From Lachnospiraceae bacterium (GTDB lineage: Bacteria > Bacillota > Clostridia > Lachnospirales > Lachnospiraceae), in assembly GCA_015057515.1 (NCBI GenBank), contig SVED01000004.1, positions 1 through 61,316 of the forward strand: a stretch of 61,316 nt of DNA. Reading direction: 5' to 3'. The notes beneath the pieces were generated by a model that was not told the origin of the DNA, ran no database searches, and saw only the letters and a list, made by a program, of their open reading frames with translations. A program made the translations under genes and the position numbers. Positions 3,922 to 45,389 of this stretch are shown here, one piece after another. Each line of letters opens with the position of its first letter. Position 1 is the first letter of the stretch.

Positions 3922-4406
3922 ATTTATTTTATAGGTATGTACACCCTGTATGCCACCCATATGCTGTAGTATTTCCTTGCAACTTTACGGGTTATAAGGA
4001 ATCCTACGGCTCGCACTTTCGATTTTTGATTACGTGCCGCTTCAGGAACTCGCCTGTCCCTTAAGGTCTTGTGGGTATAATTAGTCAACCAGCTAGCTTG
4101 TACCAAATATCAAGGTTTTATCAATTGCGATGAAGGCGCCGCGGAAGCGATGTTTGAGGTACGAGTTCGCGAGAGCGGCGCCCAATCAAACATCGCAATT
4201 GTAAAACCTTAGATATTTGCACAAGCGTAACGCTGGGGACTAATTATACCTACAAGAACTAAAGGGACAGACTCAAACATCCTTCCCGCGGCACGATTAA
4301 TCGAAAGTGTCTGCGCCTAGGATTACTAATAACCCTAGTTGTCAGCGGAAATACTACAGCATATGGATTGGCATACGCTGATGTATATTATGTTTATAAA
4401 ATAAAT
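3922..4406. repeat. Long quasi-palindromic element, copy 1 (inverted orientation, no apical hairpin)
   Basis: Imperfect inverted repeat filling the gap between two convergent genes. The core at about 3977-4343 matches copies 2 and 3 in reverse orientation. Outer arms unique to this copy include a perfect 20-bp pair (3957-3976 with 4347-4366) and a 12-bp pair (3922-3933 with 4395-4406). Unlike the other copies it lacks the roughly 70-bp apical hairpin, so the centre is only a short loop between the two GGCGCC blocks. Both arms carry TATAATTAG pointing inward. It contains no credible gene. No named repeat family was recognised. Confidence 0.85.
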
Positions 4407-4436
4407 TATGGGTAGATGGCCTGCCACCTTGGGGGA

Positions 4437-5180
4437 TTAGTGCTCGTATCTTTGAAGGAGGTCCTTGGTGTAGGTGCCATCCTTGTTGTATACTACGAGA
4501 GCTGGCTCCACTTTTACCATAGGTTTACCACCCTTTGATGCTTCAATAAGTACCATGTTTGGTTCCTTATCCTGATAAGGTTGTACCATGCATAGACGTT
4601 TTAATTCCAGCTTGTACATGGAAAGTGTTCGAATAATCTCTGCAAGGCGAAAAGGCTTATGAACCATAACAAAATTGCCACCCTCTTTGAGAAGGTATGC
4701 GGCTGCATTAATTACGTCTTCCAAACTAACCAGTATCTCATGTCTGGCAATATTCTTAGGTGCCATAGCATTTTCAAGGCCATGGTTTTGAGTTATATAT
4801 GGTGGATTAGATGTCACAATATCAAAAGAGGCTGCCTTGAACAAACAAGGCACCTCTTTAATATCTCCACATACTATGTCTATATCCTGTTCTAGTTGAT
4901 TGTATGCCACACTACGTCTTGCCATATCTGCACTATATTCTTGAATCTCTAATCCTGTAAAATGAGATCCCTTGTTTCTTCCACGCATTAAAAGTGGAAT
5001 AACACCGGTGCCAGTCCCCAGGTCTATAACCTGTCCTTTTGGCTTTGGTGTTGCATAATCTGACAAGAGTACAGCATCCATACCAAAACAAAAAGTATCT
5101 GGATTCTGGATAATGTGATATCCTCTGCATTGAAGATCATCCAACCTCTCACCTGCTTTTAGTATATCACTACTCATCAT
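4437..5180 (-). CDS. yabB: tRNA1(Val) adenine-N6 methyltransferase-like protein (YabB/TrmN6 family)
   Basis: Class I SAM-dependent methyltransferase of the YabB/TrmN6 family, whose E. coli member methylates A37 of tRNA1(Val). The 247 residues show SAM motif I VIDLGTGTG at 51-59 and the N6-adenine catalytic NPPY at 125-128, preceded by a hydrophobic strand. The length is typical. It overlaps the 3' end of ricT by 11 bp and is last in the tmk operon, the same neighbourhood as in Bacillus. Two consecutive ATG codons are possible starts. The RNA substrate is inferred from the family. Confidence 0.85.
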   Translation of the reverse strand: MMSSDILKAGERLDDLQCRGYHIIQNPDTFCFGMDAVLLSDYATPKPKGQVIDLGTGTGVIPLLMRGRNKGSHFTGLEIQEYSADMARRSVAYNQLEQDIDIVCGDIKEVPCLFKAASFDIVTSNPPYITQNHGLENAMAPKNIARHEILVSLEDVINAAAYLLKEGGNFVMVHKPFRLAEIIRTLSMYKLELKRLCMVQPYQDKEPNMVLIEASKGGKPMVKVEPALVVYNKDGTYTKDLLQRYEH

Positions 5181-6081
5181 CTAACTTAGACTTTCCTTCC
5201 TTACGCTCTAATGCTTCAAGTTTCTTAAGCTCTGCGTCACTTATCTTGTCGTCGTTGTATCTCTTCTTTCGCTTAAATCTTAAGTCATCTACTTTGTACT
5301 CTTCAATCTCCTTTGTGTCATCTTCCTGAGTAACAATTATCTTTACCTTCTGTCTGAGTACATTTACAGATGCTACCTCTCCCTTTTTGCCATCAACGGT
5401 TTTCACAAAATCTCCTACATTTGGCAAACGATCATTTAAATACTCGTAGGTATCCTGCTCATGTTTAAGACAACACATTAGTCTGCCACAAACGCCTGAT
5501 ATCTTGGTAGGATTGAGTGAAAGGTTTTGTTCCTTTGCCATTTTAATGGATACAGGCACAAACTCGGAAAGATGCTTATTACAGCAAAGCTCTCGGCCGC
5601 ATATTCCTATACCACCCACTATCTTAGTCTCATCACGTACTCCTATCTGGCGTAACTCTATACGAGTTTTAAATACTGCTGCCAAATCTTTTACCAGCTC
5701 TCTGAAATCAATTCGTCCATCTGCAGTAAAATAAAACAATACCTTGTTGTTGTCAAATGTATACTCTGCATCTATAAGTTTCATTTCAAGGTTATGCTTT
5801 GCTATTTTCTCAAGACATATATCGTATGCTTTTTTGCAGTTTTCCTTGTTTGCAATATATCTGGCTTCATCATCTTCATTTGCAAGTCGAATAATTGGTT
5901 TTAGCGCTGATGACATTTTTGTCTCATCAATCTCTCTTCTGCCCAGTACAACTTTGCCGTACTCTACTCCTCTTGCAGTCTCTACTATAACGTGTTGTCC
6001 AACCTCCACTTCATGATTTCCCGGATCAAAGAAATATATCTTTCCGTTATCTCTAAAGCGAACTCCTATAACTTCCTTCAT
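5170..6081 (-). CDS. ricT: RicT/YaaT, PSP1 domain protein
   Basis: PSP1-domain protein. In Bacillus, RicT forms an iron-sulfur complex with RicA and RicF that supports RNase Y-dependent mRNA maturation, competence and sporulation. The 303-residue product carries cysteines in two short motifs, CGRELCC at 161-167 and CGRLMCC at 198-204, the expected metal-ligand clusters. The C-terminal tail is lysine/glutamate-rich. It starts one base after the holB stop and overlaps yabB by 11 bp, so translation is probably coupled. RicA and RicF are not in this window. Confidence 0.9.
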   Translation of the reverse strand: MKEVIGVRFRDNGKIYFFDPGNHEVEVGQHVIVETARGVEYGKVVLGRREIDETKMSSALKPIIRLANEDDEARYIANKENCKKAYDICLEKIAKHNLEMKLIDAEYTFDNNKVLFYFTADGRIDFRELVKDLAAVFKTRIELRQIGVRDETKIVGGIGICGRELCCNKHLSEFVPVSIKMAKEQNLSLNPTKISGVCGRLMCCLKHEQDTYEYLNDRLPNVGDFVKTVDGKKGEVASVNVLRQKVKIIVTQEDDTKEIEEYKVDDLRFKRKKRYNDDKISDAELKKLEALERKEGKSKLDDE

Positions 6082-6082
6082 G

Positions 6083-7069
6083 TTAAATCTCCTTTAGTGT
6101 GAGCAATAATAGCTCCATAGTTACGTCAAAATTAGCATTTACCTCTAATCTCTGCTTAGCTCTGGCTATGGCCTCCACCTTATCCTCAATAGCCTTATAT
6201 GAATGAACCTGAGCCTGTTTTCTCATAGTTGAATACTCTCCCTTAAATAAGAGCTTATCTATGTTTCCTGTAACCTTAAGCATAAGCACATCTCTGTACC
6301 ACATCATCATAAGGTCTAAATAATCATTTATGGATACTTTAAATTTGTCAATCTGCTCCATAGCAAAGGCCAAATCATCAACATCCATATCCTGTATTTT
6401 CTTTAAAACTGCTACTACTGAGTCTATAACCTGAACATATTCACTGTTAGTTGCAAGCTTTATAGCTTTACCCAGATTTCCCTGGGCGAAATCCAGACAG
6501 AAATATGCCTTTTCCTCTGTAAGTCCCATCTCCTTCATAAGATACTGCAACATATCACGCTCTCTTATAGGCTTTGTGTTAAGCACTATACAACGTGATA
6601 ATACTGTCTCCAGCATCTTGCTGAGATTTGCTGTAAGCAAAATAATAATACCATACTCTGGTGGTTCTTCAATAGTTTTTAGGAGTGCATTCTGAGCCTG
6701 AGCATTCATAAGATGAGCATCAGGAATAACATATATCTTATACTTACTCTCATAAGGCTTAGTGCTTATAGGCTCAATCACTTGATTTCTTATCTCTTCA
6801 ACAGATATGATATTTGGTTTTTCGTGAGTAACTGTAACAATATCAGGGTGATTGCCTGATACATACTTCACACATGATTTACATTTCCCACAAGCCTCCA
6901 AACCGCCCTCTTCACACTGAAGAGTTGCCACAAAAGCTCTGGCTAAAAGCTTTTTACCACTATCAACCTCGCCGTTAATTATATAAGCGTGGCTAATTTT
7001 ATCCATCTCAATACTGCTTCTAAAATGTCTTATTATATCCTCGTGACCAACAATATTTTTAAAGTACAT
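6083..7069 (-). CDS. holB: DNA polymerase III delta' subunit
   Basis: Clamp-loader delta' subunit of the replicative polymerase, an AAA+ protein that helps load the beta clamp. The 328-residue product has a degenerate P-loop region (GEVDSGKK near residue 36), a zinc-binding cysteine cluster (C, then CGKCKSC) near 53-67 and a conserved segment AQNALLKTIEEPP that matches clamp-loader family proteins. The frame opens at a GTG three codons earlier, but AGGAGG lies eight bases before ATG 7069, which decides the start. It sits in the tmk-yaaR-holB-ricT-yabB operon. Confidence 0.9.
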   Translation of the reverse strand: MYFKNIVGHEDIIRHFRSSIEMDKISHAYIINGEVDSGKKLLARAFVATLQCEEGGLEACGKCKSCVKYVSGNHPDIVTVTHEKPNIISVEEIRNQVIEPISTKPYESKYKIYVIPDAHLMNAQAQNALLKTIEEPPEYGIIILLTANLSKMLETVLSRCIVLNTKPIRERDMLQYLMKEMGLTEEKAYFCLDFAQGNLGKAIKLATNSEYVQVIDSVVAVLKKIQDMDVDDLAFAMEQIDKFKVSINDYLDLMMMWYRDVLMLKVTGNIDKLLFKGEYSTMRKQAQVHSYKAIEDKVEAIARAKQRLEVNANFDVTMELLLLTLKEI

Positions 7070-7081
7070 ACGCCACACCTC

Positions 7082-7522
7082 CTAGGTAGAAATATCAAGT
7101 AACAAGCCTCTTATATCATCAATCTTGCCAAGTATTGCAAGATTATCTTTCTCTTCCTTAAGCAACTCTGTAGCAAGTTCATCTAAGTTCTTATCCACCT
7201 GACGAACTATGCCATATACTCTGTGCCTTCCCCTTCTATCAAGGAAATTTTCTCTGGAAAATTCGTGGGAACGGGATACTATCTCATTCATAAATTCTTT
7301 GACTGTAGAACGATACTTCTTCATGTCTTTAATATCCATGTGCTTGGCTATCTTAGCACCCTGCTCTTCAATCTCCTTCATAAGAGATGTAAGCTTCTCC
7401 TGAAGCTGACTCTCTTCTATATTTTTTACGAGAGTAAACTTGAAATCTTCATTAGTTGCAACGGAATTCTTAGGTGCTTCCATTTGCGTAAGCTGCTGCA
7501 ATTGATTTACTTTTATATCCAT
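7082..7522 (-). CDS. yaaR: YaaR family protein (DUF327)
   Basis: Member of the YaaR/DUF327 family, small helical cytosolic proteins without a proven biochemical role. They are recognised by length (146 residues here) and by their fixed position between tmk and holB in many Firmicutes. The visible sequence is charged and helical, with conserved segments around [12 protein letters not shown] and [15 protein letters not shown]. It starts 36 bp after tmk and ends 12 bp before holB, so it is co-transcribed. No catalytic motif is visible. Confidence 0.85.
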
Positions 7523-7558
7523 AGCTACTCTCCTTTCCTAAAATATAGCACGTTAATT

Positions 7559-8185
7559 CTATCTATTGAGCACTGCCTCCACATACTTAACTATTTTGTT
7601 GTGTATATCCTCAATAGTCATAGTGGCATCAATAGATTTGATTCTATCAGGGTTAAGAGTTGCCAAATCTCTATATCCCTGAGCTACCCTCTCATGAAAC
7701 TCTAAAGTCTCAAGCTCCATGCGGTCAAGTTCTGCCTGCTTCTTCTTTCGGCTGATACCCACCTTGGCAGGAAGATCCATATGAATAGTCAAATCAGGCA
7801 TAACACCCTGGATTGCATAACTATTAATCTGGTATGCCGTCTCAACGCCAAGACCTCTTGCCATGCCCTGATAAACCGCTGAAGAATCCACAAATCTATC
7901 GCTGATTACTGCCTTACCTGCTTCCAGCGCTGGTTTAATAACCTGGCTCACAAGCTGAGCTCTTGCTGAGGCATACAACAAAGCCTCCGTCATATATCCC
8001 ATCTCAACATAATCCTTGTTGAGAATAATTTCTCTGATAGCTTCACTTATTACTGTTCCTCCCGGCTCTCTGGTTATAATAATCTCATCATAACCCTTTG
8101 CCTCAAGGTAGCTTTTTAATAGCTCTATCTGAGTACTTTTGCCGGAACCATCTGGTCCCTCCATCGAAATGAATATTCCCTGCAT
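7559..8185 (-). CDS. tmk: Thymidylate kinase
   Basis: Phosphorylates dTMP to dTDP in DNA precursor synthesis. P-loop GPDGSGKST lies near residues 10-18, the DRF motif (ISDRFVDSS) near 93-101 and the lysine/arginine-rich LID region RKKKQAELDR near 145. The frame is open from a TTG at 8209, with ATG codons at 8197 and 8185. I chose 8185 because it gives the family-typical 'QGIFISMEGPDG' beginning and has GGAG six bases upstream; 8197 is also possible. It is first in the operon, and the leader begins just downstream of a strong sigma-28-like promoter at 8215-8241. Confidence 0.93.
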   Translation of the reverse strand: MQGIFISMEGPDGSGKSTQIELLKSYLEAKGYDEIIITREPGGTVISEAIREIILNKDYVEMGYMTEALLYASARAQLVSQVIKPALEAGKAVISDRFVDSSAVYQGMARGLGVETAYQINSYAIQGVMPDLTIHMDLPAKVGISRKKKQAELDRMELETLEFHERVAQGYRDLATLNPDRIKSIDATMTIEDIHNKIVKYVEAVLNR

Positions 8186-8214
8186 ATCTATCTCCATAAA
8201 ACCTTCCAAATATT

Positions 8215-8241
8215 ATATCGGCACATCGAAGAACCTTTTTA
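8215..8241 (-). promoter_or_regulatory. Sigma-28 (SigD/FliA)-type promoter for the tmk operon
   Basis: On the minus strand the sequence reads TAAA, 15 bp, then GCCGATAT, an exact match to the Gram-positive SigD consensus. A TATAAT overlaps the -10 region but has no good -35 at 17 bp, so sigma-A use cannot be excluded. A further TATAAT lies upstream at about 8270-8275 with a weak -35. Confidence 0.6.
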
Positions 8242-8340
8242 TATACATCATTTAAAGCTTTGCATATACACATATAATTATAACACTATAAAGAGATTTT
8301 TTCCACTAGAATAAATGTGGTAACCAGGATTATATGAAAT

Positions 8341-8387
8341 AAAAGCATGCCAGCAAGGGCAATCATTGCCCTACCAGCATGCTTTTT
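8341..8387 (-). terminator. Intrinsic terminator after the ABC transporter gene
   Basis: Long hairpin with outer stem AAAAGCATGC/GCATGCTTTT and inner stem GGGCAAT/ATTGCCC. It has a T-run on either strand and could work in both directions. It lies 20 bp downstream of the transporter stop codon and upstream of the tmk promoter. Confidence 0.85.
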
Positions 8388-8406
8388 ATTAGATATAATC
8401 TTAGGT

Positions 8407-11394
8407 TTATTCAGTTCTAAGCGCCACAACAGGATCCTTTTTAGCTGCACTTCTTGAAGGAATTATACCTGCAATAAGTGTAAGACATACGCTGATAACA
8501 ACAAGGATTATAGCTGCCGGTACTGGCAGATATGCACTTAGGTTGTTTATTTTTGTAATGTTGTGCATCACTATGTTGATTGGGATACAAAGCAGATACG
8601 TTACTACTACTCCCAACAAACCTGATGCAAAACCAACTATCATAGTTTCTGCGTTGAACATACGTGATACGTTCTTCTTTGATGCACCGATAGCACGAAG
8701 AATACCAATCTCCTTTGTTCTCTCCTGAACAGAGATAAGTGTAATTACACCAATCATAATGGATGAAACTATAAGTGATATAGCAACAAAAGCAATAAGT
8801 ACGTATGTTATGGCATTGATAATGGTTGTAATGGATGACATCATAATACCAAGGTAATCTGTGTACTTAATCTTCTGTAGCTCCTCAACATCATTGTTAT
8901 AATCCTCGATGGCATCAACTATAGTATCCTTTTCCTCAAAGGATGAAGCATATATGTTTATAGTTGCCGGTGAATCTAAATCAATATATCCCATTGCAAG
9001 AAGATTATCCTCGTATGTTGAATCTGAGAAAGTCATAATCTCATCATAGTAAAGAGCACATTGCTCAGCTGTAAATGAGTCCATAGCCATATTAAGTCCC
9101 GCCACAAGCTCTGCTGTGCTAAGAGCCTGCATTTGAGCAATAACCTGCTCTGCATATTGGGCCTTAATCTGCTCACTCATCATCTGACCGAAGAATTCTG
9201 CCATCTCCTCATCAGACATAGAGCCAAAGTACGCCATAATCTCATCCTTGTTAATACCTACCTCTGCGCTCATAGCATCAGCAAGAGTGGCCTCAATATC
9301 CTCTCTTGTCATAGTTGAGAGAACCTCTTGTACCTGTTGCTGCACAAACTCAGGTGCTGGAATACAACTAATTGCAATGTAAGCAGCTGCTTGCTCACTT
9401 CTATCAAGAGAATCAATATATTCTCTGAAGGCTGCTTCCTTTTCCTCGTTAGTAAGATTTCCAGTTGATGAATCAAATGGTAATCCAGTGATAACATCGG
9501 TTTCTGGGCTTGCAAGCTGTGCGTCGATAACCTCTGCATCACGACTTTCGTTTATAATATACTCTGTAAGGGCACGTGTATAGCATATACTACTTGTAAG
9601 CATAGCTACATCGGTATCTTCACTAGGCTTTATAATACCTGTTACCTTAAGTGACAAACCATTGTCATAGAGGTACTTAAGACCTGTCTCAGTTTCTCTT
9701 AAATCTGTGTACAAGCCAGTAGATGGGTCATAGCTGTAACAGTCTGAATTAAGAATAACTCTATACTCAGATGCACAGATTTCTTCGTAAGACCAACTGA
9801 CCTCTTCTCTTTCCCCGAGGTCAGTTCGATTTATAGCTGCATCGGCAAGAATGTCAATATCCTCCTCCGACACAAGACCTAATGCATAAAGTGTTATATC
9901 ATCTAATTCGTTATTTCTATCTAATACAAGAACTATCTCATCATAGCTGTTTGGCCAGGAACCATAAACCAAGTCATACTGCTCCAGTACCAAATCATTT
10001 ACTGGGGCACCATCGTTACCAGGGAGGAGCTCCTGCCACAGACTTACACTGTAAGACATAGAAGCCATAGGTGATGCCTCCTGCATAGCCATCATTGACG
10101 ACATATCTATGCCTACATATTCCAGCATCAAATCCATTATAGTTTCTTCAAGGTTGGTGGTTATTATCTTGCCATCAACACTTTCTGTATATATCTGTAA
10201 ATCTAAATCATATGTATACTGAATACCATTTACCGCTGAAGAAAGTGGTGTTCCCTCTGTAGCAACCTCAGCCTCAAGATGTTCCTTAAAAGTTTTAAGA
10301 TCATTATGAGTTTCCTGAATGCTATTCATTGCATCTATCATATCATAGAGAGCAGACTGCTTATATACCGCGTCCATCGGATGCTTCTCTTCCTCACCAG
10401 AGGTATTGACAAATGCTTCTACAAGAGCTGACATCTCAACTGTTGATGCCTCCAATGTAAGAGGATAAGCTGATAAGGTACTTTCCTGCACATCATTAAT
10501 ATATCGGGTCATTCCCTGCGAAATAGAAAGGATAAGAGCTATACCAATAATACCTATTGAACCAGCAAAGGCTGTAAGGGTTGTTCTTCCCTTCTTTGTA
10601 AATAAGTTCTTAAGGGACAGCATAAAGGATGTACTAAAGGACATAGAAGGCTTTTTTTCCTTCTTTTTCTTAGGTGTAGCCTCTTCCTTCTTAGCATCCT
10701 CCTTAAGCTCCTCCTCAGTAAGAGGCTTAGAGTCATCTGTTATCTTTCCATCTAACATTCTGATGATACGTGAAGAATACTGCTCTGCCAATTCTGGGTT
10801 ATGAGTTACCATGATGATGAGTCTATCCTTTGATATTTCCTTCAATATCTCCATAACCTGAACACTTGTCTCTGTATCAAGGGCTCCTGTTGGCTCATCT
10901 GCAAGAATTATATCCGGATTATTTACAAGGGCACGGGCAATAGCAACTCTCTGCATCTGTCCACCAGACATCTCTCCCGGTTTCTTAGTAAGCTGATCCC
11001 CAAGTCCCACGTCCTCAAGTGCTTTCTTTGCTCTCTGGCGTCTCTCCGCCTTAGATACACCTGAAAGAGTAAGGGCAAGTTCTACATTCTGCAATACTGA
11101 CTGATGTGGTATAAGGTTATAGCTCTGGAACACAAAGCCTATTGAGTGGTTACGATACGCATCCCAATCTCTATCCTTATACTCCTTTGTGGATCTGCCG
11201 TTGATAATCAAATCTCCCTCTGTGTATCCGTCAAGTCCACCTATAATATTAAGCATTGTGGTTTTACCACAACCAGACTGTCCAAGTATTGAAACAAACT
11301 CGGACTTTCTGAACTTTAGATCTATCCCCTTCAAGGCATGAACTACACCATTACCTGCAGGGTAATCCTTTTTAATTCCTTTTAACTCTAACAT
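8407..11394 (-). CDS. ABC transporter, fused ATP-binding and FtsX/MacB-type permease
   Basis: Single-chain half of a MacB-like (type VII) ABC system, a class used for peptide or antimicrobial export and for mechanotransmission. From ATG 11394 (995 residues) there is Walker [10 protein letters not shown] at about 38-46, signature [10 protein letters not shown], Walker [11 protein letters not shown], a lysine-rich linker, a first membrane segment near 270-290, an extracytoplasmic region of more than 500 acidic residues, and three C-terminal membrane segments with the FtsX hallmark [16 protein letters not shown]. The frame extends to GTG 11451, but that codon overlaps the -10 of a good promoter, so a start at 11394 (or 11424) is required. 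The outer domain is unusually large. Substrate unknown. Confidence 0.88.
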
Positions 11395-11442
11395 CCTTTT
11401 GTTCTTACCTTTCTTAAAAACCATTAAAAAATTCCACTCTTC

Positions 11443-11470: not shown

Positions 11471-11510
11471 CAAAAATAATGTGAAATTTTAATGAACGGT
11501 TCTGTACAGA

Positions 11511-14820: not shown

Positions 14821-14822
14821 TA

Positions 14823-21963: not shown

Positions 21964-23136
21964 ATGAAGATTATTTTTTGTAGATGGAAAAGTATATGTG
22001 AGGACGGTATAACTAACGCTATCAAGCGAATGGGACATACTTTGGTTGCCTTAGACCGACCTTTTACAAGTGTAGACTACGACAAGGAGTACCTTCAGGT
22101 TTTAGTTAAGCTTGTTCAGGATAACCCTGACGCTTCCTGCGTCTTATCTGTTAACTTTCAGCCTATAGTTGCCCGTGCCTGTAAGGTTCTTAAGATTCCT
22201 TATCTTTCATGGACCGTGGACTGCCCAAGCTTCCAGCTCTACTCCCAGACTGTAGCTTACCCAACCAATCGTATTTTCCTGTTGGACCGCATGCAAGCCG
22301 AGAAGTTTTCTCCTCTGAACCCGGAAAATATTTTCCATCTGCCTTTAGGCTGCGACCTGGAAACCTGGGACAGCGTAAAGGTTACTGCTGAGGACCACAA
22401 GATGTACGATTGTGATATTTCCTTCGTGGGCTCCCTTTATTCTGAAAAATGTAAATATAATGTCATTGAAAAGGATTTGGACGACTATACCAAGGGATAC
22501 GTTGATGCCCTTATCAACGCCCAGCTAAATGTGTACGGTTACAATTTCCTAGAAGATTCCATCTCCGATGAATGGGCAGAACGCTTTAAGGCGCAAGCCG
22601 GATGGATTCCTCTTGCAGAGGATTATATTGAGGATGTAAAAGGCATCGTAGCCGATACCTTTATCGGTTATAAATGTACTGAACAGGAGCGAATTCGTAC
22701 CCTTGATGCCATAAGCCAGCACTTTAATATGGACCTTTGGACTCTCAGTGATACCTCTATGCTTCCACGCATCAACAACCGTGGTGGTGCGGACTCTGTC
22801 ACTATGATGCCAAAGATTATAAAATGTAGCAAAATTAATCTTAATATGACTAATCGACCTATCAAAACCGGACTACCATTGCGCATCTTCGACCTTATGG
22901 GTGCAGGTGGCTTCGTTCTATCCAACTATCAGTCCGAAATCCCAGAGCACTTTATCCCAGGAGAAGACATAGTCCTCTACGACAGCATCCCAGACATGCT
23001 CTCCAAGATAGACTACTATCTCTCCCACGAGGAAGAGCGCCTTGCCATCGCCCAAAGCGGATACGAAAAAATCAAGAAATTCCACACCTACGACATCAAG
23101 CTTCAAACCATGTTCCAGATGGCGGGACTACTGTAA
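21964..23136 (+). CDS. CgeB/DUF3880-type glycosyltransferase
   Basis: A 390-residue cytosolic protein resembling the DUF3880 plus GT1-like glycosyltransferase arrangement found near flagellar and surface-glycan genes of Clostridia. Visible conserved parts are the SWTVDCP segment near 79-85, PLGCDLETWD near 122-131, CDISFVGSLYSEK near 145-157 and the C-terminal donor-site region GLPLRIFDLMGAGGFVLSNYQ. The longer frame starts at 21919 inside the terminator; ATG 21964 has AAAGGA eight bases upstream. The stop codon is inside the left outer arm of element copy 2. The acceptor is unknown; flagellin or a surface polymer is likely from context. Confidence 0.75.
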   Translation: MKIIFCRWKSICEDGITNAIKRMGHTLVALDRPFTSVDYDKEYLQVLVKLVQDNPDASCVLSVNFQPIVARACKVLKIPYLSWTVDCPSFQLYSQTVAYPTNRIFLLDRMQAEKFSPLNPENIFHLPLGCDLETWDSVKVTAEDHKMYDCDISFVGSLYSEKCKYNVIEKDLDDYTKGYVDALINAQLNVYGYNFLEDSISDEWAERFKAQAGWIPLAEDYIEDVKGIVADTFIGYKCTEQERIRTLDAISQHFNMDLWTLSDTSMLPRINNRGGADSVTMMPKIIKCSKINLNMTNRPIKTGLPLRIFDLMGAGGFVLSNYQSEIPEHFIPGEDIVLYDSIPDMLSKIDYYLSHEEERLAIAQSGYEKIKKFHTYDIKLQTMFQMAGLL

Positions 23137-23748
23137 GCAAGCCCCTGACTTTTGCCTACAATACTAAGGAACATCCACCCAGGCCCTTTGCCTTGTGGCG
23201 GCGGTTAGTGGTTTTCCCGCAGACAACACAGGGTTCTTAGCAATCCTAGGCGCAAGGGCTTTCGATAAATCGTGCCGCGGGAAGGATGTCTGAGATTGCC
23301 CCTTTAGGTCTTGTAGGTATAATTAGTCCCCAGCCTACGCTTGTGCATATATCTAAGATTTTACAATTGCGATGTATGATTAGGCGCCGCTTACACCAAC
23401 TCTGTCCATCTCGTCAGATTTGCCCCAAAAAGAAACGGGACCTCGTTTCTTTTTGGGGCAAATCTGACGAGATGGGACCTCAAACACGGTTTCCGCGGCG
23501 CCTTCATCGCAATTGTAAAACCTTGATATATGGTACAAGCTAGCTAGTTGACTAATTATACCCACAAGACCTTAAGGGGCAGTCGAGTTCCTAGAGCGGC
23601 ACGTAATCAAAAATCGAAAGTCCGAGCCGTAGGATTTCTTAGAACCCGTCGACGTTGCAAGGGAAAACCACTAACCACCGCCACAAGGCAAAGGGCCTGG
23701 GTGGATGTTCCTTAGTATTGTAGGCAAAAGTCAGGGGCTTGCTTACAG
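23131..23748. repeat. Long quasi-palindromic element, copy 2
   Basis: A 618-bp inverted repeat between two convergent glycosyltransferase genes. The outer arms are 88 bp (23131-23218 with 23661-23748) with a single mismatch and include the last Leu codon and stop (CTGTAA) of both genes. The core at about 23221-23660 matches copies 1 and 3, including shared unpaired bulges. The centre is a perfect 32-bp stem (23407-23438 with 23445-23476). Each arm carries an inward TATAATTAG. Open frames across it are palindrome artefacts. No known family recognised. Confidence 0.9.
23407..23476. terminator. Apical bidirectional terminator-like hairpin of element copy 2
   Basis: Perfect 32-bp stem with a six-base loop GGACCT. 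Next to the loop the stem contains CCCCAAAAAGAAACG paired with CGTTTCTTTTTGGGG, so each strand has a T-run after the tip stem. This is the layout of a bidirectional intrinsic terminator serving both convergent genes. Confidence 0.7.
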
Positions 23749-24786
23749 TTCCTCCGGCATCTGCCACTGGCTAAGCTCGGTGTCGTAGTGTGTTGCCATT
23801 TCCTGATACTGTGGATTTTGGGTGATGGCGGCTAATTCTTTGTAGCAGTGTACTAAACCTTGTAATGGCAGGTCTCCACTGCAATGTATGTCGATAATGC
23901 TTACTGTTTCGTATGCTGCGTTTAGGTACCAGACTATAGCTTCATCATAGTCCCCTTGAGCTTGGTAGTAGGCTCCCAAATCGTAGCACATCTCAGAGCA
24001 TGGTGTTTCCATCATATCACGAAGTGCATACTTGAAAAGGTTGGCAGGATCATTGCTAAGGCGATAATGTCTTGCAAGGACGCATGCCGCTTCCTTTCCC
24101 CTGTCGGAAAGTGGATTTAACTGCCATAGTTCTTGGAAGATGGCATAGGCCTTAATAAAATCTTCCGGCTCTCCCATCTTGAGAAGCTGCTGGGCATACA
24201 TACGATAAAGCTTATCTGAAAGCTTACCTTGGGCAGCATATTCCTTGAGAAAGATTCTAAAGTCACGCTTGCCATGAAGGGCTAGAGGCTTATGAATAAT
24301 CTCAATATCGCTATTGAAAACTACCGGGTCAATTCTTACTGTCTCGTGAATAGGGTCAATCCATGTATAGGTTCTAAGACGCTTGAACAACTTTGGTCTG
24401 TACTCTTTTTTTGCGTTAAGAAGACTGCCGTCCTCAGAAACTGTCACATACTTCATCTGAACCATCTCAATCTCAGGAAGCATACATTTCTTGAGAATCT
24501 TGAAACGTGTACGGTTTTCTTCATCTAAAATTTCGTCTGCATCCGGCGCATATATGTAATCCATTGTTGCCTTTGAAAAGGAAAAATTCCTAGCTGCAGA
24601 AAAATCATCTATCCACTGAAAATCATATATTTTGTCAGTATATTTTGCAGCAATTTCCTTTGTTCTGTCAGTAGAACCTGTATCCACTATGATAATCTCA
24701 TCCATAAGGTCCGCCACTGTGTCAAGACAACGGGCAAGTATGGATTCTTCATTTTTTACAATCATACATAAGCTTATAGTTATCAT
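23743..24786 (-). CDS. Family 2 glycosyltransferase with C-terminal TPR-like region
   Basis: GT-A fold glycosyltransferase, similar in build to SunS-type or lipopolysaccharide-core GT2 enzymes. From ATG 24786 (347 residues) the N-terminus is MITISLCMIVKNEE, followed by VDTGSTDRT near 35-43 and the metal-binding YAPDADEIL near 79-87. The C-terminal 150 residues are helical repeats of TPR type (EAIVWYLNAAYE). The frame opens at ATG 24849, but ATG 24786 fits the domain boundary. A nine-codon leader frame (24783-24812) with a strong AAGGAG site ends in an ATGA overlap with this start, suggesting coupled re-initiation. The 3' end lies within the arm of element copy 2. Confidence 0.8.
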   Translation of the reverse strand: MITISLCMIVKNEESILARCLDTVADLMDEIIIVDTGSTDRTKEIAAKYTDKIYDFQWIDDFSAARNFSFSKATMDYIYAPDADEILDEENRTRFKILKKCMLPEIEMVQMKYVTVSEDGSLLNAKKEYRPKLFKRLRTYTWIDPIHETVRIDPVVFNSDIEIIHKPLALHGKRDFRIFLKEYAAQGKLSDKLYRMYAQQLLKMGEPEDFIKAYAIFQELWQLNPLSDRGKEAACVLARHYRLSNDPANLFKYALRDMMETPCSEMCYDLGAYYQAQGDYDEAIVWYLNAAYETVSIIDIHCSGDLPLQGLVHCYKELAAITQNPQYQEMATHYDTELSQWQMPEEL

Positions 24787-37395: not shown

Positions 37396-37449
37396 AATAA
37401 TACTCCCGTACCTTTTTAAATCCTATTCCAGATGCAATATCCTTTAATA

Positions 37450-39264: not shown

Positions 39265-39362
39265 AGCTTCTCCTTTTTTAACCATATTTCATCAACAGTT
39301 TTTGGAACTTTGCTGTCACACAAATATCCACCAATATAAACAAACCAGTACAAACTTGTTAA

Positions 39363-40610: not shown

Positions 40611-40676
40611 CAATATAATCCTCCGTGATATCTGATATTAAAAATCCGTTTTTAATAGTAATTCCCCGATATGATT

Positions 40677-40703
40677 ATATCGACATTTTATATGAAATTG
40701 TTA
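40677..40703 (-). promoter_or_regulatory. Sigma-28-type promoter for the tagF-licD-degT glycan operon
   Basis: Minus strand: TAAC, 15 bp, GTCGATAT. The -10 is identical to that of the neuB promoter at 31217. It begins about 65 bp before the tagF-like gene. Confidence 0.5.
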
Positions 40704-40739
40704 ATGTTTTTCTATGATTTTGTGAGGAAAAGTTTGTAC

Positions 40740-41459
40740 TTATAATGTCTTAGTAAGTTGCTCCTTAGCTCTTAAAAATTCTTCCTCTGTATCTATGTCA
40801 AAATTCTCTTCCATCTTGTATCCAACAATGTGTTTGCCAGACATAGAATTCATATCAAATATAACTCTTGGTCTAAAAACATCTATGCAAGCGTTTTGAT
40901 AATACACCACTGGAAGCTCCTGTCTAGGCATATTGTAACACTCCGGAATATTAGTTATAAGTGGTCTAATTCTTACACATTTATCCTCTTTAAAAGCTAA
41001 TCCCTCATCTAAAAGCCACATCTTATATGGCACCTCTGTGGCCTTGCTCATACTTCGAACAGAATCTATAGCTTCATCCTTCATGCAAATATCTATCATA
41101 GCGTCTATGTCCTCAACCCGTCTAATAGGATAGGTTGGGCGCAACTGTACCACTATGTCTGCCTGATAGCCTTCCTTCTCTTCTAAATAGGTTAGGGCAT
41201 GTCTGAAAACATCTATATCCAATGCTGTATCAGTGGCATACTCTGCCGGCCTTATAAAAGGCACCTCTGCCCCATATTTTCTTGCTATATCTGCATATTC
41301 CTCGCTGTCTGTACTTACTATTACTCTGTTAATGTACTTTGAAGAAAGTGCATGGGAAATAGAGTAAGCAATCATTGGCTTACCCCCTATATCGCGTATG
41401 TTTTTGTGAGGCACCGACTTAGAGCCGGACCTAGCAGGTATTATAGCTAATATATTCAT
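40740..41459 (-). CDS. neuA: CMP-nonulosonate (acylneuraminate) cytidylyltransferase
   Basis: Activates a sialic-acid-like sugar with CTP, making the CMP donor used by Maf-type glycosyltransferases. The 239 residues start with the typical NILAIIPARSGSKSVPHKNI and contain VSTDSEEYADIARKYGA near 48-64 and VVQLRPTYPIRR near 101-112. Length and motifs fit NeuA/PseF. It works with the NeuB-type synthase at 29676. There is no strong ribosome site upstream; instead an AT-rich 19-bp palindrome lies at 41472-41490. Confidence 0.9.
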   Translation of the reverse strand: MNILAIIPARSGSKSVPHKNIRDIGGKPMIAYSISHALSSKYINRVIVSTDSEEYADIARKYGAEVPFIRPAEYATDTALDIDVFRHALTYLEEKEGYQADIVVQLRPTYPIRRVEDIDAMIDICMKDEAIDSVRSMSKATEVPYKMWLLDEGLAFKEDKCVRIRPLITNIPECYNMPRQELPVVYYQNACIDVFRPRVIFDMNSMSGKHIVGYKMEENFDIDTEEEFLRAKEQLTKTL

Positions 41460-41575
41460 ATTGTTGCATATAATTCAATTATATTGAATTATCCCCTTTC
41501 ATTTTATATACCTTTTTACACTCTAAAATGTACCTGGGCTTTTTCTACTTCTCAAACAAATTTTTACAACAACTT

Positions 41576-43414
41576 TTACAATGGATTGTCTGGCATGGTT
41601 TCTATGCAGTAATCTATTTCCTTTATAATTTCCGGTATGGCATCCGATATTCGCTGATAATATTTTTCACTTTTCTTGTAAAGGCGAATGGATTCCTTAA
41701 TATCGTCCTCATCCTCCATATACATATCATCAGCCATCTCAATATCTGCATCCGCCACATACTTGGTTATATATATACGCTCTTCTGAAGCCAAAAGCTT
41801 GCTCTCCACATTTGCCATATTGGCGTTTATTCTCTTTAGTTCCTTTACATTAAAATCTCCTCGTTCCAGCATAAGGGCACCCATCCTTGCATCTGCTGCC
41901 GCGTTAAGGAACAATTTTCTAAGATTTCGCATATTGTTTTTAAGCTGATTGAATCCTTCAGTAACAATATGATAATTCTCTCCCACAAAACGTACTGGTG
42001 GCTTATTCAAAAGAGTATTTATATCATATATCTCTTGACAATAGGTATCTATAGCCTGACGAAGAGTCATAATTGTTGTATGTTCCTTATAGGCACCACC
42101 CTCTGTGGCATCTATAATTTCAATATCCCGAAATTGATACCCAATCTCCTCTATCCATCTTATATAGTTACGATAATCCTTTCTGGTAAGAATATCATTT
42201 CCCTCTAAATCCTTCACATAGGCAAGACCCATATCAAGATCCTCAACCTTTGCTTCCTCCTCATCTGCGTGGACCATATTTCCAGTAAGGGCCAAGTCCT
42301 GACCTACTAAAATTATTTTTCTAAAGCCCCAGGAAATCATATGTCCAATGGCAGCTGTAGACACAGAACCGCCTGATTCAATGGTACATATTTCACTGCC
42401 AGCTTCTTCAAACAATCTTGCCCAAAGTAAGGAATCTGAAGAATTAAATATTAAATTCTTTGGTTTAACATGTGCCAAAACTTTTGCATTGGTATCCATA
42501 TCTGCTAAAAATGGAATATCACTAAGGTCCCCCACATTAAAATGCTTTTTTGATTTATGATAGTCCACAGAAATAATCATGTCTGGTATAATATCTCTTG
42601 ATATAACCTTAGGTATGGCAGTATCAACTACCAATATAAGGGCCTTACCCTTTGCCTCTTTTAAAAGTTCCACATTCTTCGTCAAAGAAGGTCCCGCAGA
42701 TACAATAATAACCGGCATATTTTCTGGAAAAATTCCTACATAATCTCTACCGCTACGACATCCGACTAGTCTCTTTGTATTGTATAGACCATTTTTACAA
42801 CATCTTACACCGTACTCTGTAACAGTAACTTCCTCTGCACGTACTCTATCATATTGTTCATTTAAAATATGCTCTATTTTTCTACAAGACTCTGGAAATA
42901 GTTCTTTATATTTAGGCAAAATCATATGCACATTTGTGTTTCGGTTATAAATCTGAATATAATCAGACATTATCAGTCCAAAATGTGAATCATCTATACC
43001 TTCCACCACAAGAAATACATTTTTGTCAGCAAGTATATCTGTTATATCCACAGATTTAACAACCTCCATAAACACAGCTATGGATGGCTCATATACTACA
43101 CAGTGTACGTTTTTGATCCTTTTCTTTACAAATTCCTTGAGGAAGGCACCATTTGCTAAACCGATTATAGTGAGCACTGATTCATCTGGCATTCCAACCA
43201 CATCAGACATATACTTCTCTGCCTCTCTTGCTGGATTGTAGGTAGAATTTAAATACACGACTGTATCACCCTTGCAGTATTTTACTATTTTTTCACCATT
43301 TTTAGCTTCCTCCATCACAACAAGACCATCATCATATTCCTTTTCTTTGATGACAGCCTCGTATAAATCCGGACGAACGTCGCATAATGCTTTAAGATTA
43401 TTCTCGTAAATCAT
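41576..43414 (-). CDS. maf: Motility accessory factor (Maf), second DUF115 paralogue
   Basis: A 612-residue Maf-family protein, expected to transfer a CMP-activated nonulosonic acid to flagellin. It shows VIIVSAGPSLTKNVELL near 234-250, DMIISVDYHKSKK near 281-293, ESGGSVSTAAIGHM near 343-356 and LVGQDLALTGNMVHADE near 364-380. The C-terminal 150 residues are helical. It lies between a small gene near the flagellins and the neuA-type gene. Only modest similarity to the paralogue at 27919 is visible outside the DUF115 motifs, so the two may differ in donor or in target flagellin. Confidence 0.85.
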   Translation of the reverse strand: MIYENNLKALCDVRPDLYEAVIKEKEYDDGLVVMEEAKNGEKIVKYCKGDTVVYLNSTYNPAREAEKYMSDVVGMPDESVLTIIGLANGAFLKEFVKKRIKNVHCVVYEPSIAVFMEVVKSVDITDILADKNVFLVVEGIDDSHFGLIMSDYIQIYNRNTNVHMILPKYKELFPESCRKIEHILNEQYDRVRAEEVTVTEYGVRCCKNGLYNTKRLVGCRSGRDYVGIFPENMPVIIVSAGPSLTKNVELLKEAKGKALILVVDTAIPKVISRDIIPDMIISVDYHKSKKHFNVGDLSDIPFLADMDTNAKVLAHVKPKNLIFNSSDSLLWARLFEEAGSEICTIESGGSVSTAAIGHMISWGFRKIILVGQDLALTGNMVHADEEEAKVEDLDMGLAYVKDLEGNDILTRKDYRNYIRWIEEIGYQFRDIEIIDATEGGAYKEHTTIMTLRQAIDTYCQEIYDINTLLNKPPVRFVGENYHIVTEGFNQLKNNMRNLRKLFLNAAADARMGALMLERGDFNVKELKRINANMANVESKLLASEERIYITKYVADADIEMADDMYMEDEDDIKESIRLYKKSEKYYQRISDAIPEIIKEIDYCIETMPDNPL

Positions 43415-43470
43415 ATACCTTTTTCCTTTTATGTAGTTTGATATATCTATGGCAGCGCAGGGCTACATAA

Positions 43471-43737
43471 CTATCCTACCTGGTCTAATATCTCAATAAG
43501 CTCATAGGATATAATATCTGCCAAAAGTGTACCATCCTTATTTTCCATAGCAGCAAGCGCTGGTGTAAGGGCATCATTTATAAGTCTTCCCCGAAGCTCC
43601 TCGTCTGTAATCTGGGATGCAATAAGTGCAATCTCTGGTAAAACAGTACCCATCTTTGCCATACCAAGATTTACATCTCCTTTATACAAAATGTCTGCTA
43701 CTTCCTGAAGTTTGGTTTTAGTAGTTGATATATCCAT
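43471..43737 (-). CDS. Small helical protein between flagellin and maf, unknown function
   Basis: An 88-residue protein I do not recognise. ATG 43737 is preceded by GGGAGG, so the longer frame to 43818 is rejected (it would run into the flagellin terminator). The sequence is predicted helical and acidic, with a conserved-looking GDVNLGMAKMGTVLPEIALI stretch and no Cys, signal peptide or membrane segment. It lies between the flagellin terminator and the Maf gene, which suggests a role in flagellin handling or glycosylation, for example as a chaperone or a Maf partner. This is inference from position only. Confidence 0.75.
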   Translation of the reverse strand: MDISTTKTKLQEVADILYKGDVNLGMAKMGTVLPEIALIASQITDEELRGRLINDALTPALAAMENKDGTLLADIISYELIEILDQVG

Positions 43738-43806
43738 ATTAACCTCCCTAATATTATAAATATACTTACTTTTGCTGGATTGCCTGAAATTTGTATATTT
43801 TAAAAT

Positions 43807-43832
43807 AGGCTGACTCACATTAGAGTCAGCCT
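43807..43832 (-). terminator. Terminator of flagellin gene 1
   Basis: Perfect 10-bp stem AGGCTGACTC/GAGTCAGCCT with a six-base loop, 21 bp after the flagellin stop, followed on the minus strand by TATTTTAAAAT. Confidence 0.85.
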
Positions 43833-43852
43833 GTATGTATCAATAATATAAA

Positions 43853-44665
43853 TTACTGAATAAGTGAAAGTACTCCCTGAGTAGACTGGTTAGCCTGTGA
43901 AAGCATTGACTGTGCAGCCTGCTGAAGAATATTTGACTTAGTGTAGTTAGACATCTCAGTCGCCATATCTGTATCTCTGATTGTTGACTCAGCTGATGTT
44001 AAGTTCTCTGAGTAGTTTTCAAGATTGTTGATTGTGTAATCAAGTCTGTTCTGCTTAGCACCAAGAAGTGATCTAGCATCTGAAACCTTGATGATCGCCT
44101 TAGATATAAGTGATATAGCCTGTGATGCATTTGCATGACTATCTACAGTAATATCTACAATACCAAGCTCTGTAGCATTCATCTTTGCAATAGAAATCTT
44201 CATATTCTCACCGTAGTTTGCACCAACCTGAAGATACTTGCCAGTATAATCGCCGTTAAGAAGCTTAGTTCCGTTAAATGCTGCCTTTGAAGAAATAGCA
44301 TCAACCTCTGCAATAAGCTCTGTCATTTCTGCTGCAATAGCATTACGATCTTCTGTTGCGTTAACATCGTTGGCTGCCTTAGTAGCAAGCTCACCCATTC
44401 TCTGAAGAATGCTGTGAATCTCGTTCATGTTACCTTCTGCTGTCTGGATAAGAGATACACCATCCTCTGAATTCTTAACTGACTGGTTGATACCTCTGAT
44501 CTGATTTCTCATCTTCTCACTTATAGAAAGTCCTGCTGCATCATCAGCTGCTCTGTTTACTGCATAACCTGATGATAACTTCTCAGTTGACTTAGAAACT
44601 GCCTTTACGTTCTGTCCTAACATTCTGTTTGTATTAATTGCCTGCATATTGTGCTGTACTACCAT
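43853..44665 (-). CDS. fla1: Flagellin (copy 1)
   Basis: Major filament protein. Its 270 residues consist almost entirely of the conserved D0/D1 helices: N-terminal NMQAINTNRMLG, LSSGYAVNRAADDAAGLSIS, a short central NGTKLLNGDYTGKYLQVG part, and C-terminal STIRDTDMATEM to SQANQSTQGVLSLIQ. The outward D2/D3 domain is missing, so the filament should be smooth and thin. AAGGAGG precedes the ATG. A sigma-28-like promoter lies about 105 bp upstream and a strong terminator follows. It is over 90% identical by eye to the flagellin at 45455. Confidence 0.96.
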   Translation of the reverse strand: MVVQHNMQAINTNRMLGQNVKAVSKSTEKLSSGYAVNRAADDAAGLSISEKMRNQIRGINQSVKNSEDGVSLIQTAEGNMNEIHSILQRMGELATKAANDVNATEDRNAIAAEMTELIAEVDAISSKAAFNGTKLLNGDYTGKYLQVGANYGENMKISIAKMNATELGIVDITVDSHANASQAISLISKAIIKVSDARSLLGAKQNRLDYTINNLENYSENLTSAESTIRDTDMATEMSNYTKSNILQQAAQSMLSQANQSTQGVLSLIQ

Positions 44666-44767
44666 AATAATTCCTCCTTGAAATACATTCCTTTTATTTT
44701 ATATTTTCTCCTATTGTATAAAGCAAAATTCGATATACAATATGTTGTACAACTTACTTACACTATG

Positions 44768-44795
44768 TATATCGGAACTTACTCCCAATACTTAA
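44768..44795 (-). promoter_or_regulatory. Sigma-28 promoter of flagellin gene 1
   Basis: Minus strand: TTAA, 15 bp, TCCGATAT. The leader is about 95 nt, with an 8-bp hairpin (ATTGTATA/TATACAAT) followed by three GGA motifs, the last being the ribosome site; CsrA binding is possible. The left arm of element copy 3 begins about 30 bp upstream. Confidence 0.75.
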
Positions 44796-44823
44796 CACCT
44801 TTTTTAATTTTTTTTAAAAAATT

Positions 44824-45389
44824 TCTCATAATACATTTTATCTCGATTTTTGAAATGTGGTATGTCAACATATATATACAATAATTTCTGAAGACAACTA
44901 GGGTTCTTAATAATCCTAGGCTGAAGGGCTTTCGATAAATCGTGCCGCGGGAAGGATGTCTGAGACTGCCCCTTTAGTTCTTGTAGGTATAATTAGTTCC
45001 CAGCGTTACGCTTGTGCAAATATCTAAGGTTTTAAAATTGCGATGAAGGCGCCGCTCTCACCAACTCGGCCCATCTCATAAGATTCACAAAAAAGAGAAC
45101 GTGACCTCGTTCTCTTTTTTGTGAATCTTATGAGATGGAACCTCAAACACGGTTTCCGCGGCGCCTTCATCGCAATTTATAAAACCTTGATATTTGGTAC
45201 AAGCTAGCTGGTTAACTAATTATACCTACAAGAACTAAAAGGGCAGACGAGTTCCTGGAGCGGCACGTAATCAAAAATCGAAAGCCCGAGCCGTAGGATT
45301 ACTTAGAAACCGTAGAGTTGCGAAGAAATTATTGTATATATATGTTGACATACCATTTTAAGTTTATATGTATAAAATGTATTATGAGA
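44824..45389. repeat. Long quasi-palindromic element, copy 3 (between the two flagellin genes)
   Basis: A 566-bp inverted repeat. Locus-specific outer arms are an 18-bp pair (44824-44841 with 45372-45389) and a perfect 31-bp pair (44859-44889 with 45324-45354). The core at about 44893-45333 matches copy 2 in the same orientation and copy 1 inverted. The apex is a perfect 31-bp stem (45071-45101 with 45108-45138). Bulges in the core occur at the same places as in the other copies. It fills the gap between flagellin 2's terminator and flagellin 1's promoter. No gene is contained. Confidence 0.9.
45071..45138. terminator. Apical bidirectional terminator-like hairpin of element copy 3
   Basis: Perfect 31-bp stem with loop TGACCT. 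The tip stem GAGAACG/CGTTCTC is flanked by A6 and T6, a classic two-way intrinsic terminator. The sequence differs from the copy 2 apex at several positions, but both sides of the stem changed together. Confidence 0.75.

What the first reader, a model, noticed from the sequence alone, without database searches (positions are those of the whole stretch)
3922..45389. Three copies of an uncharacterised long quasi-palindromic element with a conserved core
Intervals 3922-4406, 23131-23748 and 44824-45389 are imperfect inverted repeats of 485-618 bp with a shared core of about 370-440 bp. The two arms of the core are not identical, and the same unpaired bulges recur in all copies: for example GGGAAGGATGTCTGAGA opposite TCCAGGAACTCG, and CAGCGTTACGCTTGTG opposite CAGCTAGCTTGTA. 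Copy 1 is inverted relative to the others. Several arm changes are matched on both sides: TGTCCC in both arms of copy 1 versus TGCCC in copies 2 and 3, and CACTTTCG versus GGCTTTCG. Conserved asymmetry plus covariation suggests selection on a fold (RNA or cruciform) or a mobile palindrome with its own spreading mechanism.
Basis: partly seen in the sequence, partly recalled or inferred. Interest (0 to 1): 0.88.

Follow-up and report, generated by a model that had tools for sequence, protein, structure and literature searches.

The report
Nested mobile hairpin repeats in Lachnospiraceae
The three long near-palindromes belong to a mobile repeat family, apparently undescribed, in gut bacteria of one family; each is built from two copies of a 150-base hairpin whose odd unpaired bulges are strictly conserved while the paired bases change together, so evolution seems to be preserving a fold.

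Summary
Observation confirmed. The three copies (about 3911-4417, 23116-23763, 44823-45390) are real quasi-palindromes without an Rfam match. Their unit is a ~150-nt hairpin module (strands p and q) with three conserved asymmetric loops; each window copy holds two modules, the inner one nested inverted in the tip of the outer. On 20 modules 28 of 42 pairs change on both sides; 95.7% of cells pair, 77.8% when shuffled. A covariance model finds it in 14 of 37 genus genomes (9 strongly), 5 of 377 others of the family sample and 0 of 390 others of a partly overlapping class sample. In four species a ~540-bp version is 89-96% identical at mostly unrelated sites: mobile. 28 of 47 classified loci lie between convergent genes (one call corrected). 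Outer arms are often site-unique; in one copy an arm repeats, inverted, the neighbouring gene's end. G-U outnumbers A-C mismatches in one strand sense. Best reading: a non-autonomous mobile hairpin read as a folded single strand. The mobiliser is unknown; Y1 transposases are absent from 8 of 8 carriers tested.

The parts
3911..4417 (-). Copy 1 (W1), whole element; ends ATCTGCAGAT... / ...GGGTAGAT
   Evidence: self-palindrome; the other copy in this genome (C35 end + C97 start) stays similar up to about these ends
4272..4343 (-). W1 outer module, strand p
3978..4052 (-). W1 outer module, strand q
4088..4237 (+). W1 inner module (p-tip-q), inverted relative to the outer one
   Evidence: covariance model R1, 142 bits, E 1.9e-35; this sequence was in the training set
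23116..23763 (+). Copy 2 (W2), whole palindrome, reaching the stop codons of both convergent genes
23131..23218 (+). W2 left base arm, found only at this site
   Evidence: I4, 94% complementary; no other match over it listed in own genome or genus (which scored 8 candidates per genome)
23661..23748 (+). W2 right base arm
23222..23294 (+). W2 outer module, strand p
23584..23659 (+). W2 outer module, strand q
23328..23549 (-). W2 inner module with a long tip stem
   Evidence: R1, 111 bits, E 3.6e-27
44823..45390 (+). Copy 3 (W3), whole element, between two tandem flagellin genes
44823..44841 (+). W3 left terminal inverted repeat TTCTCATAATACATTTTAT; near copies end three other elements of this genome (L039, L042, L043)
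45372..45390 (+). W3 right terminal inverted repeat
44893..44964 (+). W3 outer module, strand p
45248..45322 (+). W3 outer module, strand q
44999..45212 (-). W3 inner module with a long tip stem
   Evidence: R1, 108 bits, E 2.8e-26

Best explanation
A family of non-autonomous mobile elements whose unit is a ~150-nt hairpin module. SHOWN: two strands p and q pair around three conserved asymmetric loops (p: GACAAYTAG, CGATRAA, TGTYTGAG; q: CGAGTT, TAATCAAANATCG, CGTARAGTTGC; a few copies depart at single bases); modules occur singly or nested, the inner one inverted or, in one species, in the same sense; copies move; most sit at gene 3' ends. INFERRED: the loops are read on a folded single strand, most likely single-stranded DNA exposed during replication or transposition, by a mobilising protein acting in trans; nesting arises because a module inserts at the apex of another hairpin. 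INFERRED, with one clear case: base, middle and tip stems need only stay paired, and replication template switching keeps them paired, swaps their sequence and extends the palindrome into flanking DNA until it meets coding sequence that cannot be overwritten.
For: Module covariation: 28 of 42 pairs with two-sided changes, 95.7% of cells paired against 77.8% shuffled and 31-40% when slid. Two-module build: outer p aligns with the reverse complement of the inner right strand, outer q with that of the inner left strand. Same-sense nesting in G030 (L272). A one-module copy in G009 (L202) beside L201, cut at a contig end, with a nearly identical outer p followed by an inner module at the apex. Mobility: the C35 and C97 contig ends match W1 at 97.9% over 195 nt and about 95% over 226 nt, arms included, with different flanks; ten loci of a ~540-bp version (two cut by contig ends) in four species 89-96% identical, only one pair of loci sharing a flanking gene. 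Single-strand reading: G-U 47 against A-C 1 cells (13 against 1 pairs) in the 33 best model rows, 30 of them distinct; 23 against 7 in alignment A2, which was not fitted to structure. Flank-templated arm: L272's right arm repeats, inverted and imperfectly, the last ~38 nt of the left gene, whose end peptide is conserved in orthologues (own translation). Template switching can build and repair stems (PMC8794818, abstract and start of the introduction read).
Against: No mobilising gene found: 0 of 8 tested carriers of this module in the genus has a Y1 transposase, and no autonomous copy was recognised in 30 of 202 loci with the terminal repeat (no protein search of them was run). No target-site duplication seen. 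The G-U excess also fits RNA; the model counts G-U as a pair, so its rows lean that way. It is weaker elsewhere: weak model rows 57 G-U against 30 A-C, outer modules of A2 12 against 7, base arms 48 against 29, second-family core 29 against 18, and many cells are copies of one event. The count of further pair types is not above shuffles (45 against 48). Apex insertion rests on few cases, and L202 could be a deletion product. The model did not list the L272 or L265 sites at E 0.01 (for L272), so their kinship rests on alignment A2 (L272) or on my eye (L265). W2's arms match nothing else listed, so their source is unproven. Most genomes are multi-contig assemblies, and several contigs break inside the palindromes.
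Confidence: 0.5

Rival explanations
1. A structured RNA family: the module works in RNA, for example as an mRNA 3' UTR element for stability, processing or termination, and was spread by an unrelated mobile carrier.
For: Strong covariation with a G-U excess. By simple ORF of 47 classified loci lie between convergent genes (29 called, one corrected by eye) against 8-10% of neighbouring gene pairs in sampled DNA of this genus; 52 of the 56 palindrome ends at those 28 loci overlap or lie within 65 bp of a called stop codon (hand count). The inverted pair of modules gives each strand one p-q module, as two convergent transcripts would need.
Against: Apparent one-module copies in tandem contexts are not in the sense of the upstream gene: 4 sense, 7 antisense (hand count). 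The second family lies in divergent regions in 5 of 14 located copies and is 2 sense, 2 antisense in tandem ones. One R1 copy is divergent too. No Rfam family at gathering score in the window.
Confidence: 0.22
2. A giant bidirectional terminator or insulator: the hairpin ends convergent transcription; the loops are incidental or tune termination.
For: Convergent placement. The ~540-bp version typically ends in AAAAGGGGCTGTC...GACAGCCCCTTTT. Several tips have A-tract/stem/T-tract form (own reading). Stem-loops near convergent 3' ends are general in bacteria (PMC1590033, passages read).
Against: The terminator scan finds none inside copies 2 and 3, and in copy 1 two short stems with 4 and 3 G-C pairs near its right end (0.6 expected by chance). 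Some copies lie outside a separate terminator-like hairpin (own reading, L042 and L049). It does not explain conserved asymmetric loops.
Confidence: 0.12
3. An ordinary DNA-level MITE: double-stranded recognition of terminal repeats by a DDE transposase, with palindromic arms homogenised by template switching or gene conversion and no selection on any folded strand.
For: Shared terminal repeats: GGGGCTGTCRCAGTAAGGATT with up to 3 mismatches occurs 79, 41, 53 and 29 times in G014, G028, G001 and G036, none for the reversed control. Different cores sit inside the same ends (L336).
Against: Symmetric homogenisation should erase the asymmetric loops and give equal G-U and A-C mismatches; the loops are strongly conserved, and the best model rows show 47 against 1. 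Terminal repeats differ between lineages while the module is shared.
Confidence: 0.14
4. Members of the REP/RAYT or IS200-IS605 kind.
For: Palindromic repeats with conserved mismatches and modules in opposite orientation, as in BIMEs (PMC2817692, abstract read). The second family's carrier G062, in another genus, does have Y1 genes.
Against: No Y1 transposase in 8 of 8 tested carriers of this module in the genus, including G014, called 100% complete, with 79 matches to the terminal repeat. G030, which also carries the second family, has none.
Confidence: 0.02

Closest known systems
ERIC / NEMIS (Correia) / YPAL (RU-2) / RUP / Rickettsia palindromic elements (bacterial MITE-like palindromic repeats; PMC2229807 and PMC1590033, passages read)
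   Same: Non-autonomous, multicopy, intergenic, long imperfect hairpins, some near gene ends
   Different: Sizes given in the passages read are about 100-170 bp. Here about 180-790 bp, built of modules that can nest, with conserved asymmetric loops, dense covariation and often site-unique arms; found here only in genomes of one family
REP / BIME with RAYT (PMC2817692, abstract read)
   Same: Palindromes with conserved features, paired in opposite orientation
   Different: 20-40 bp units (start of the PMC3733652 abstract as listed), not nested; tied to a Y1 transposase, absent in the carriers tested here
Enterococcus faecalis Efa repeats (PMC1590033, one passage; details recalled)
   Same: Firmicute repeat in intergenic space, thought to fold into RNA hairpins
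   Different: No sequence comparison made here; described as similar in size to NEMIS and ERIC
Integron attC sites (recalled, no call)
   Same: Imperfect hairpins recognised as folded single-stranded DNA by unpaired bases, with a variable tip
   Different: Recalled size 57-141 bp, cassette arrays and an integron integrase; not searched for here
Rfam structured RNAs
   Same: Covarying stems around conserved loops
   Different: No family at gathering score in the window. In 9 loci at E up to 1: miRNA-type models match the long perfect tip stems of L060 and L044 (best E 6.9e-6, far below gathering), other hits lie in flanks (L20 leader, a cut tRNA, plastid 3' UTR, MIR172)

Membership tests
MITE (non-autonomous DNA transposon) | Many near-identical copies at unrelated sites | tested here: met
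   W1 and the C35/C97 halves; ten loci of a ~540-bp version in four species
MITE (non-autonomous DNA transposon) | Terminal inverted repeats shared among copies | tested here: met
   Within lineages: TTCTCATAATACATTTTAT type, GGGGCTGTCRCAG type; not one repeat for all lineages, and W2 has neither
MITE (non-autonomous DNA transposon) | Target-site duplication | tested here: inconclusive
   None evident by eye in flanks; a TCC match at C35/C97 only
MITE (non-autonomous DNA transposon) | A parent transposon with the same ends | tested here: inconclusive
   None recognised in the 30 loci fetched out of 202 matches; read by eye and by repeat pairing, without a protein search
REP/RAYT | Y1 (RAYT) transposase in the genome | tested here: not met
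   0 of 8 tested carriers of the module in the genus, Pfam PF01797; 6 further carriers were not tested
Structured RNA family | Covarying base pairs beyond column shuffles | tested here: met
   four of five measures 0/500; further pair types 482/500; phylogeny-aware R-scape not available
Structured RNA family | Transcription of the module | not testable with these tools
   no RNA-seq
Structured RNA family | Match to a known Rfam family | tested here: not met
Bidirectional intrinsic terminator | G-C-rich stem followed by T-run on both strands | tested here: inconclusive
   searches find none inside copies 2 and 3, two weak ones in copy 1; the ~540-bp version has such ends
Integron attC | Integron integrase and cassette array | not tested
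   no integrase search was made

The most novel reading that the evidence does not exclude
A new class of mobile element whose transposition signal is a folded strand, not terminal DNA: a 150-nt hairpin with three asymmetric loops, which inserts at the apex of other hairpins (so that elements nest inside one another in either orientation) and whose stems are written from neighbouring DNA by template switching. Several other cores (second, third and fourth types) at the same loci would then be parallel members of one such system.
Probability: 0.25. Interest if true: 0.88.

Novelty: new variant of a known kind. Interest (0 to 1): 0.68.

Why it matters
It gives a natural system in which stem sequence is nearly free, loop sequence is fixed, and copies of one module exist inside and outside other hairpins. 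That lets one ask, by comparison alone, how long palindromes are made, kept and extended in bacteria, where they are expected to be unstable (general knowledge), and whether compensatory changes come from selection or from template switching, a question raised for RNA genes (PMC8794818, abstract). It also warns that covariation by itself does not prove an RNA gene, and that assemblies can break at such elements. If a mobilising protein that reads the folded strand is found, it would be a new kind of transposition signal.

Tried and rejected
Known phage or plasmid repeat: no blastn match of the copy-3 core in either collection.

Exact-motif scans of 397 family genomes, of the genome contigs and of viral contigs gave mostly chance 17-mers. 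Of the 81 loci outside the own genome, 11 carried a palindrome and one (L090) a half element at a contig end; all 12 come from the two relatives named there RGIG8516 and RGIG8967.

Strand-neutral DNA: over whole elements G-U and A-C mismatches are equal (90 and 85, 18 elements). This first looked like evidence against any strand preference; it can be explained by the inner module being inverted. The module-wise count is rough: 16 of 18 elements were counted, 13 with both modules, and about six outer q strands were cut wrongly; replace it for the modules. One search crashed and was rewritten.

Arms captured from elsewhere: W2's arms have no further match listed in own genome or genus; arms of other copies were not searched on their own.

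REP/RAYT: rejected for this module. Autonomous parent among terminal-repeat loci: none recognised.

Terminators at the tips: my reading of A-tract/T-tract tips is not backed by the scan.

Literature: searches listed no paper that, by title or start of abstract, describes these elements. The lists are capped (for example 10 of 446, 15 of 110), only open-licence PMC papers are held, and PMC2267715 on stem-loop families was listed but not read. Subscription papers and ISfinder are not covered.
Full report
WHAT IS THERE. The three intervals are genuine quasi-palindromes. Copy 1 spans 3911-4417, copy 2 23116-23763 and copy 3 44823-45390. Copies 1 and 2 lie between convergent genes: an AI-2E-type transporter gene and a methyltransferase-type gene, and two glycosyltransferase-type genes. 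Copy 3 lies between two tandem flagellin genes. No Rfam family reaches its gathering score. The own genome, an incomplete assembly of 117 contigs, holds further copies or halves on contigs C27, C35, C56, C68, C73, C80 and C97. By blastn only 2 of 144 other relatives carry matches; contig lengths identify them as Lachnospiraceae MAGs RGIG8516 and RGIG8967.

ANATOMY. Aligning 13 copies and folding 11 shows blocks of fixed sequence, which are the unpaired loops and their rims, separated by stems whose sequence differs from copy to copy but stays mostly paired: the base arms, the middle stem and the tip stem. The core is two related modules. On the element strand the left outer arm (p) aligns with the reverse complement of the right inner arm, and the right outer arm (q) with that of the left inner arm. 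The element is therefore p - rc(q) - tip - rc(p) - q: one hairpin nested, inverted, in the tip of another. Both strands then carry one module in the p-q sense. In genome G030 a relative (L272) has both modules in the same sense. In G009 one copy (L202) has a single module closed by a short tip, while L201 of the same genome, cut at a contig end, has a nearly identical outer p followed by an inner module at that place; L044 is a complete two-module copy of that genome.

FOLD UNDER SELECTION. On 20 modules from 12 elements, 11 of G000, G009 and G033 and one of G030 (alignment A2, p and q joined by a linker), 42 pairs are predicted and 28 have two-sided changes. Counted on that alignment, 95.7% of 837 cells pair against 77.8% in shuffles; two-sided cells are 174 against 62.7; slid structures reach 31-40% pairing. 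Against this: the number of further pair types (45) is not above shuffles (48), the shuffles ignore relatedness, and the structure was predicted from the same alignment.

STRAND SENSE. If arms were kept alike simply as double-stranded DNA, G-U and A-C mismatches should be equally common. Over whole elements they are, 90 and 85, but the inner module is inverted. Read in the p-q sense, the 33 best model rows (30 distinct) give 47 G-U and 1 A-C cells, in 13 and 1 pairs; the 23 weaker rows (20 distinct) give 57 and 30. The model treats G-U as a pair, so its rows lean that way. A2, not fitted to the structure, gives 12 and 7 for outer, 11 and 0 for inner modules. Base arms give 48 and 29, middle stems 10 and 6, tips 3 and 4 (rough). 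So one strand sense seems to be read as a folded single strand, RNA or DNA; the count cannot tell which, and many cells are copies of one event.

DISTRIBUTION. A covariance model R1 hits 14 of 37 genomes of the genus at E up to 0.01, the own one included: 9 with a best E below 1e-9 and 5 (G007, G015, G019, G022, G023) only between 1e-4 and 1e-2. The nine weak loci I looked at in G004 and these five all lie in long palindromes, and their tips look alike. In a sample of the family R1 hits 5 of 377 others, in 5 genera, again in palindromes, of 176-668 bp. In a sample of the class, which partly overlaps the former, it hits 0 of 390 others. Searches used stricter filters that lose weak matches. R1 did not list L272, although its modules were in the training set, nor the G009 site of L265; so the model misses copies.

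MOBILITY. The ends of contigs C35 and C97 are halves of an element 97.9% (195 nt) and about 95% (226 nt) identical to copy 1, base arms included, with other flanks; the outermost ~22 bp are swapped between the two sides, as if the interior had inverted relative to the ends. That the two contig ends are one element is inferred. In G001, G014, G028 and G036 a ~540-bp two-module version is 89-96% identical between ten loci, two of them cut; only one pair of loci shares a flanking gene. Its end sequence occurs 79, 41, 53 and 29 times in G014, G028, G001 and G036 with up to 3 mismatches, and never reversed. Some of these are short palindromes without a module, and one (L336) encloses a different core that by eye resembles the one in G033 L259. 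No transposase was recognised in the 30 fetched loci, though no protein search was run on them. No Y1 transposase occurs in 8 of 8 tested carriers of the module; it does occur in G062, a carrier of the second family only.

PLACE. By simple ORF calls (70 aa or more) on 50 loci, 29 are convergent, 17 tandem, 1 divergent and 3 unclear; copy 3 was miscalled and is tandem, giving 28, 18 and 1 of 47. Neighbouring gene pairs in the window and 20 sampled stretches of G030 and G005 are 8-10% convergent. Loci are not independent. Of the 56 palindrome ends at the 28 convergent loci, 52 overlap a called stop codon or lie within 65 bp of one (hand count). Apparent one-module copies in tandem settings read 4 in the sense and 7 against the sense of the upstream gene (hand count), which speaks against a cis-acting mRNA role.

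THE SAME SITE IN OTHER SPECIES. The site of the C73 copy is bounded by the same two convergent gene ends in several species. G027 has about 10 bp between the stops, an empty site; G033 has a different ~430-bp palindrome. In G009 and G030 the left gene is followed by an element with W-like motifs, in G003 by a palindrome that by eye shares a core with one in G005. The gene pair of copy 2 is adjacent in G030 too, with yet another palindrome between, which belongs to a second family found in 2 of 117 relatives, G030 and G062 of another genus. In G062 all six listed copies have CA|GC before and GC|GTCC after arms that all differ. Of 14 located copies of that family 5 are convergent, 4 tandem and 5 divergent. 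So different cores share one style: fixed asymmetric core, site-unique arms.

WHERE ARMS COME FROM. In L272 the left arm includes the conserved coding end of the left gene (RIKAAIAKLS or close to it in orthologues, own translation), and the right arm carries an imperfect inverted copy of it. That is direct evidence that flanking DNA was copied across the hairpin. Template switching can create and repair stems (PMC8794818, abstract and start of the introduction). For the other copies this is inference.

VERDICT. The best-supported reading is a non-autonomous mobile hairpin family recognised as a folded single strand. Shown: modular anatomy, covariation, wide but patchy occurrence, mobility, 3'-end placement. 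Inferred: single-strand recognition, apex insertion, template switching as the general source of arms. Unknown: the mobilising protein, and whether RNA or DNA is read. It works like known bacterial palindromic repeats (ERIC, NEMIS, REP) but is larger, nested and structurally constrained, and fails the REP/RAYT test. The listings of searches, capped and limited to open-licence papers, show no description of it.

Noticed in passing
L206:18262-18562, L207:3273-3491, L210:1923-2170 (G030); L226-L238 (G030, G062): Second family of quasi-palindromes with its own ~130-bp conserved core and site-unique arms, in two genera; in G062 all six listed copies have fixed outer ends (CA|GC, GC|GTCC) around different arms.
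   Followed up: partly
L259:209-640 (G033) and L336:1118-1534: Third type of palindrome core (by eye, CACGCT.TCGCTCGTCTC...); in L336 it sits inside the same terminal repeats that elsewhere enclose the R1 modules.
   Followed up: partly
L225:6062-6332 (G005, one-contig genome) and L268/L273 (G003): Fourth core with CGCCATCCATGGCT shared, by eye, by two species; one of them is a one-contig genome, which argues against an assembly artefact.
   Followed up: no
L326, L331, L345 near 1501: A short terminator-like hairpin GGGGCTGTCRCAG...AAGCCC is repeated at gene ends in the G001/G014/G028/G036 group also without a module.
   Followed up: no
window 43849-44148 and 45451-45750: Two tandem flagellin genes share an 86% identical 300-bp stretch, with copy 3 between the genes.
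   Followed up: no
window 60324-60445: Short direct repeat, 85% identical, followed by a 74-bp palindrome at 60432-60505.
   Followed up: no
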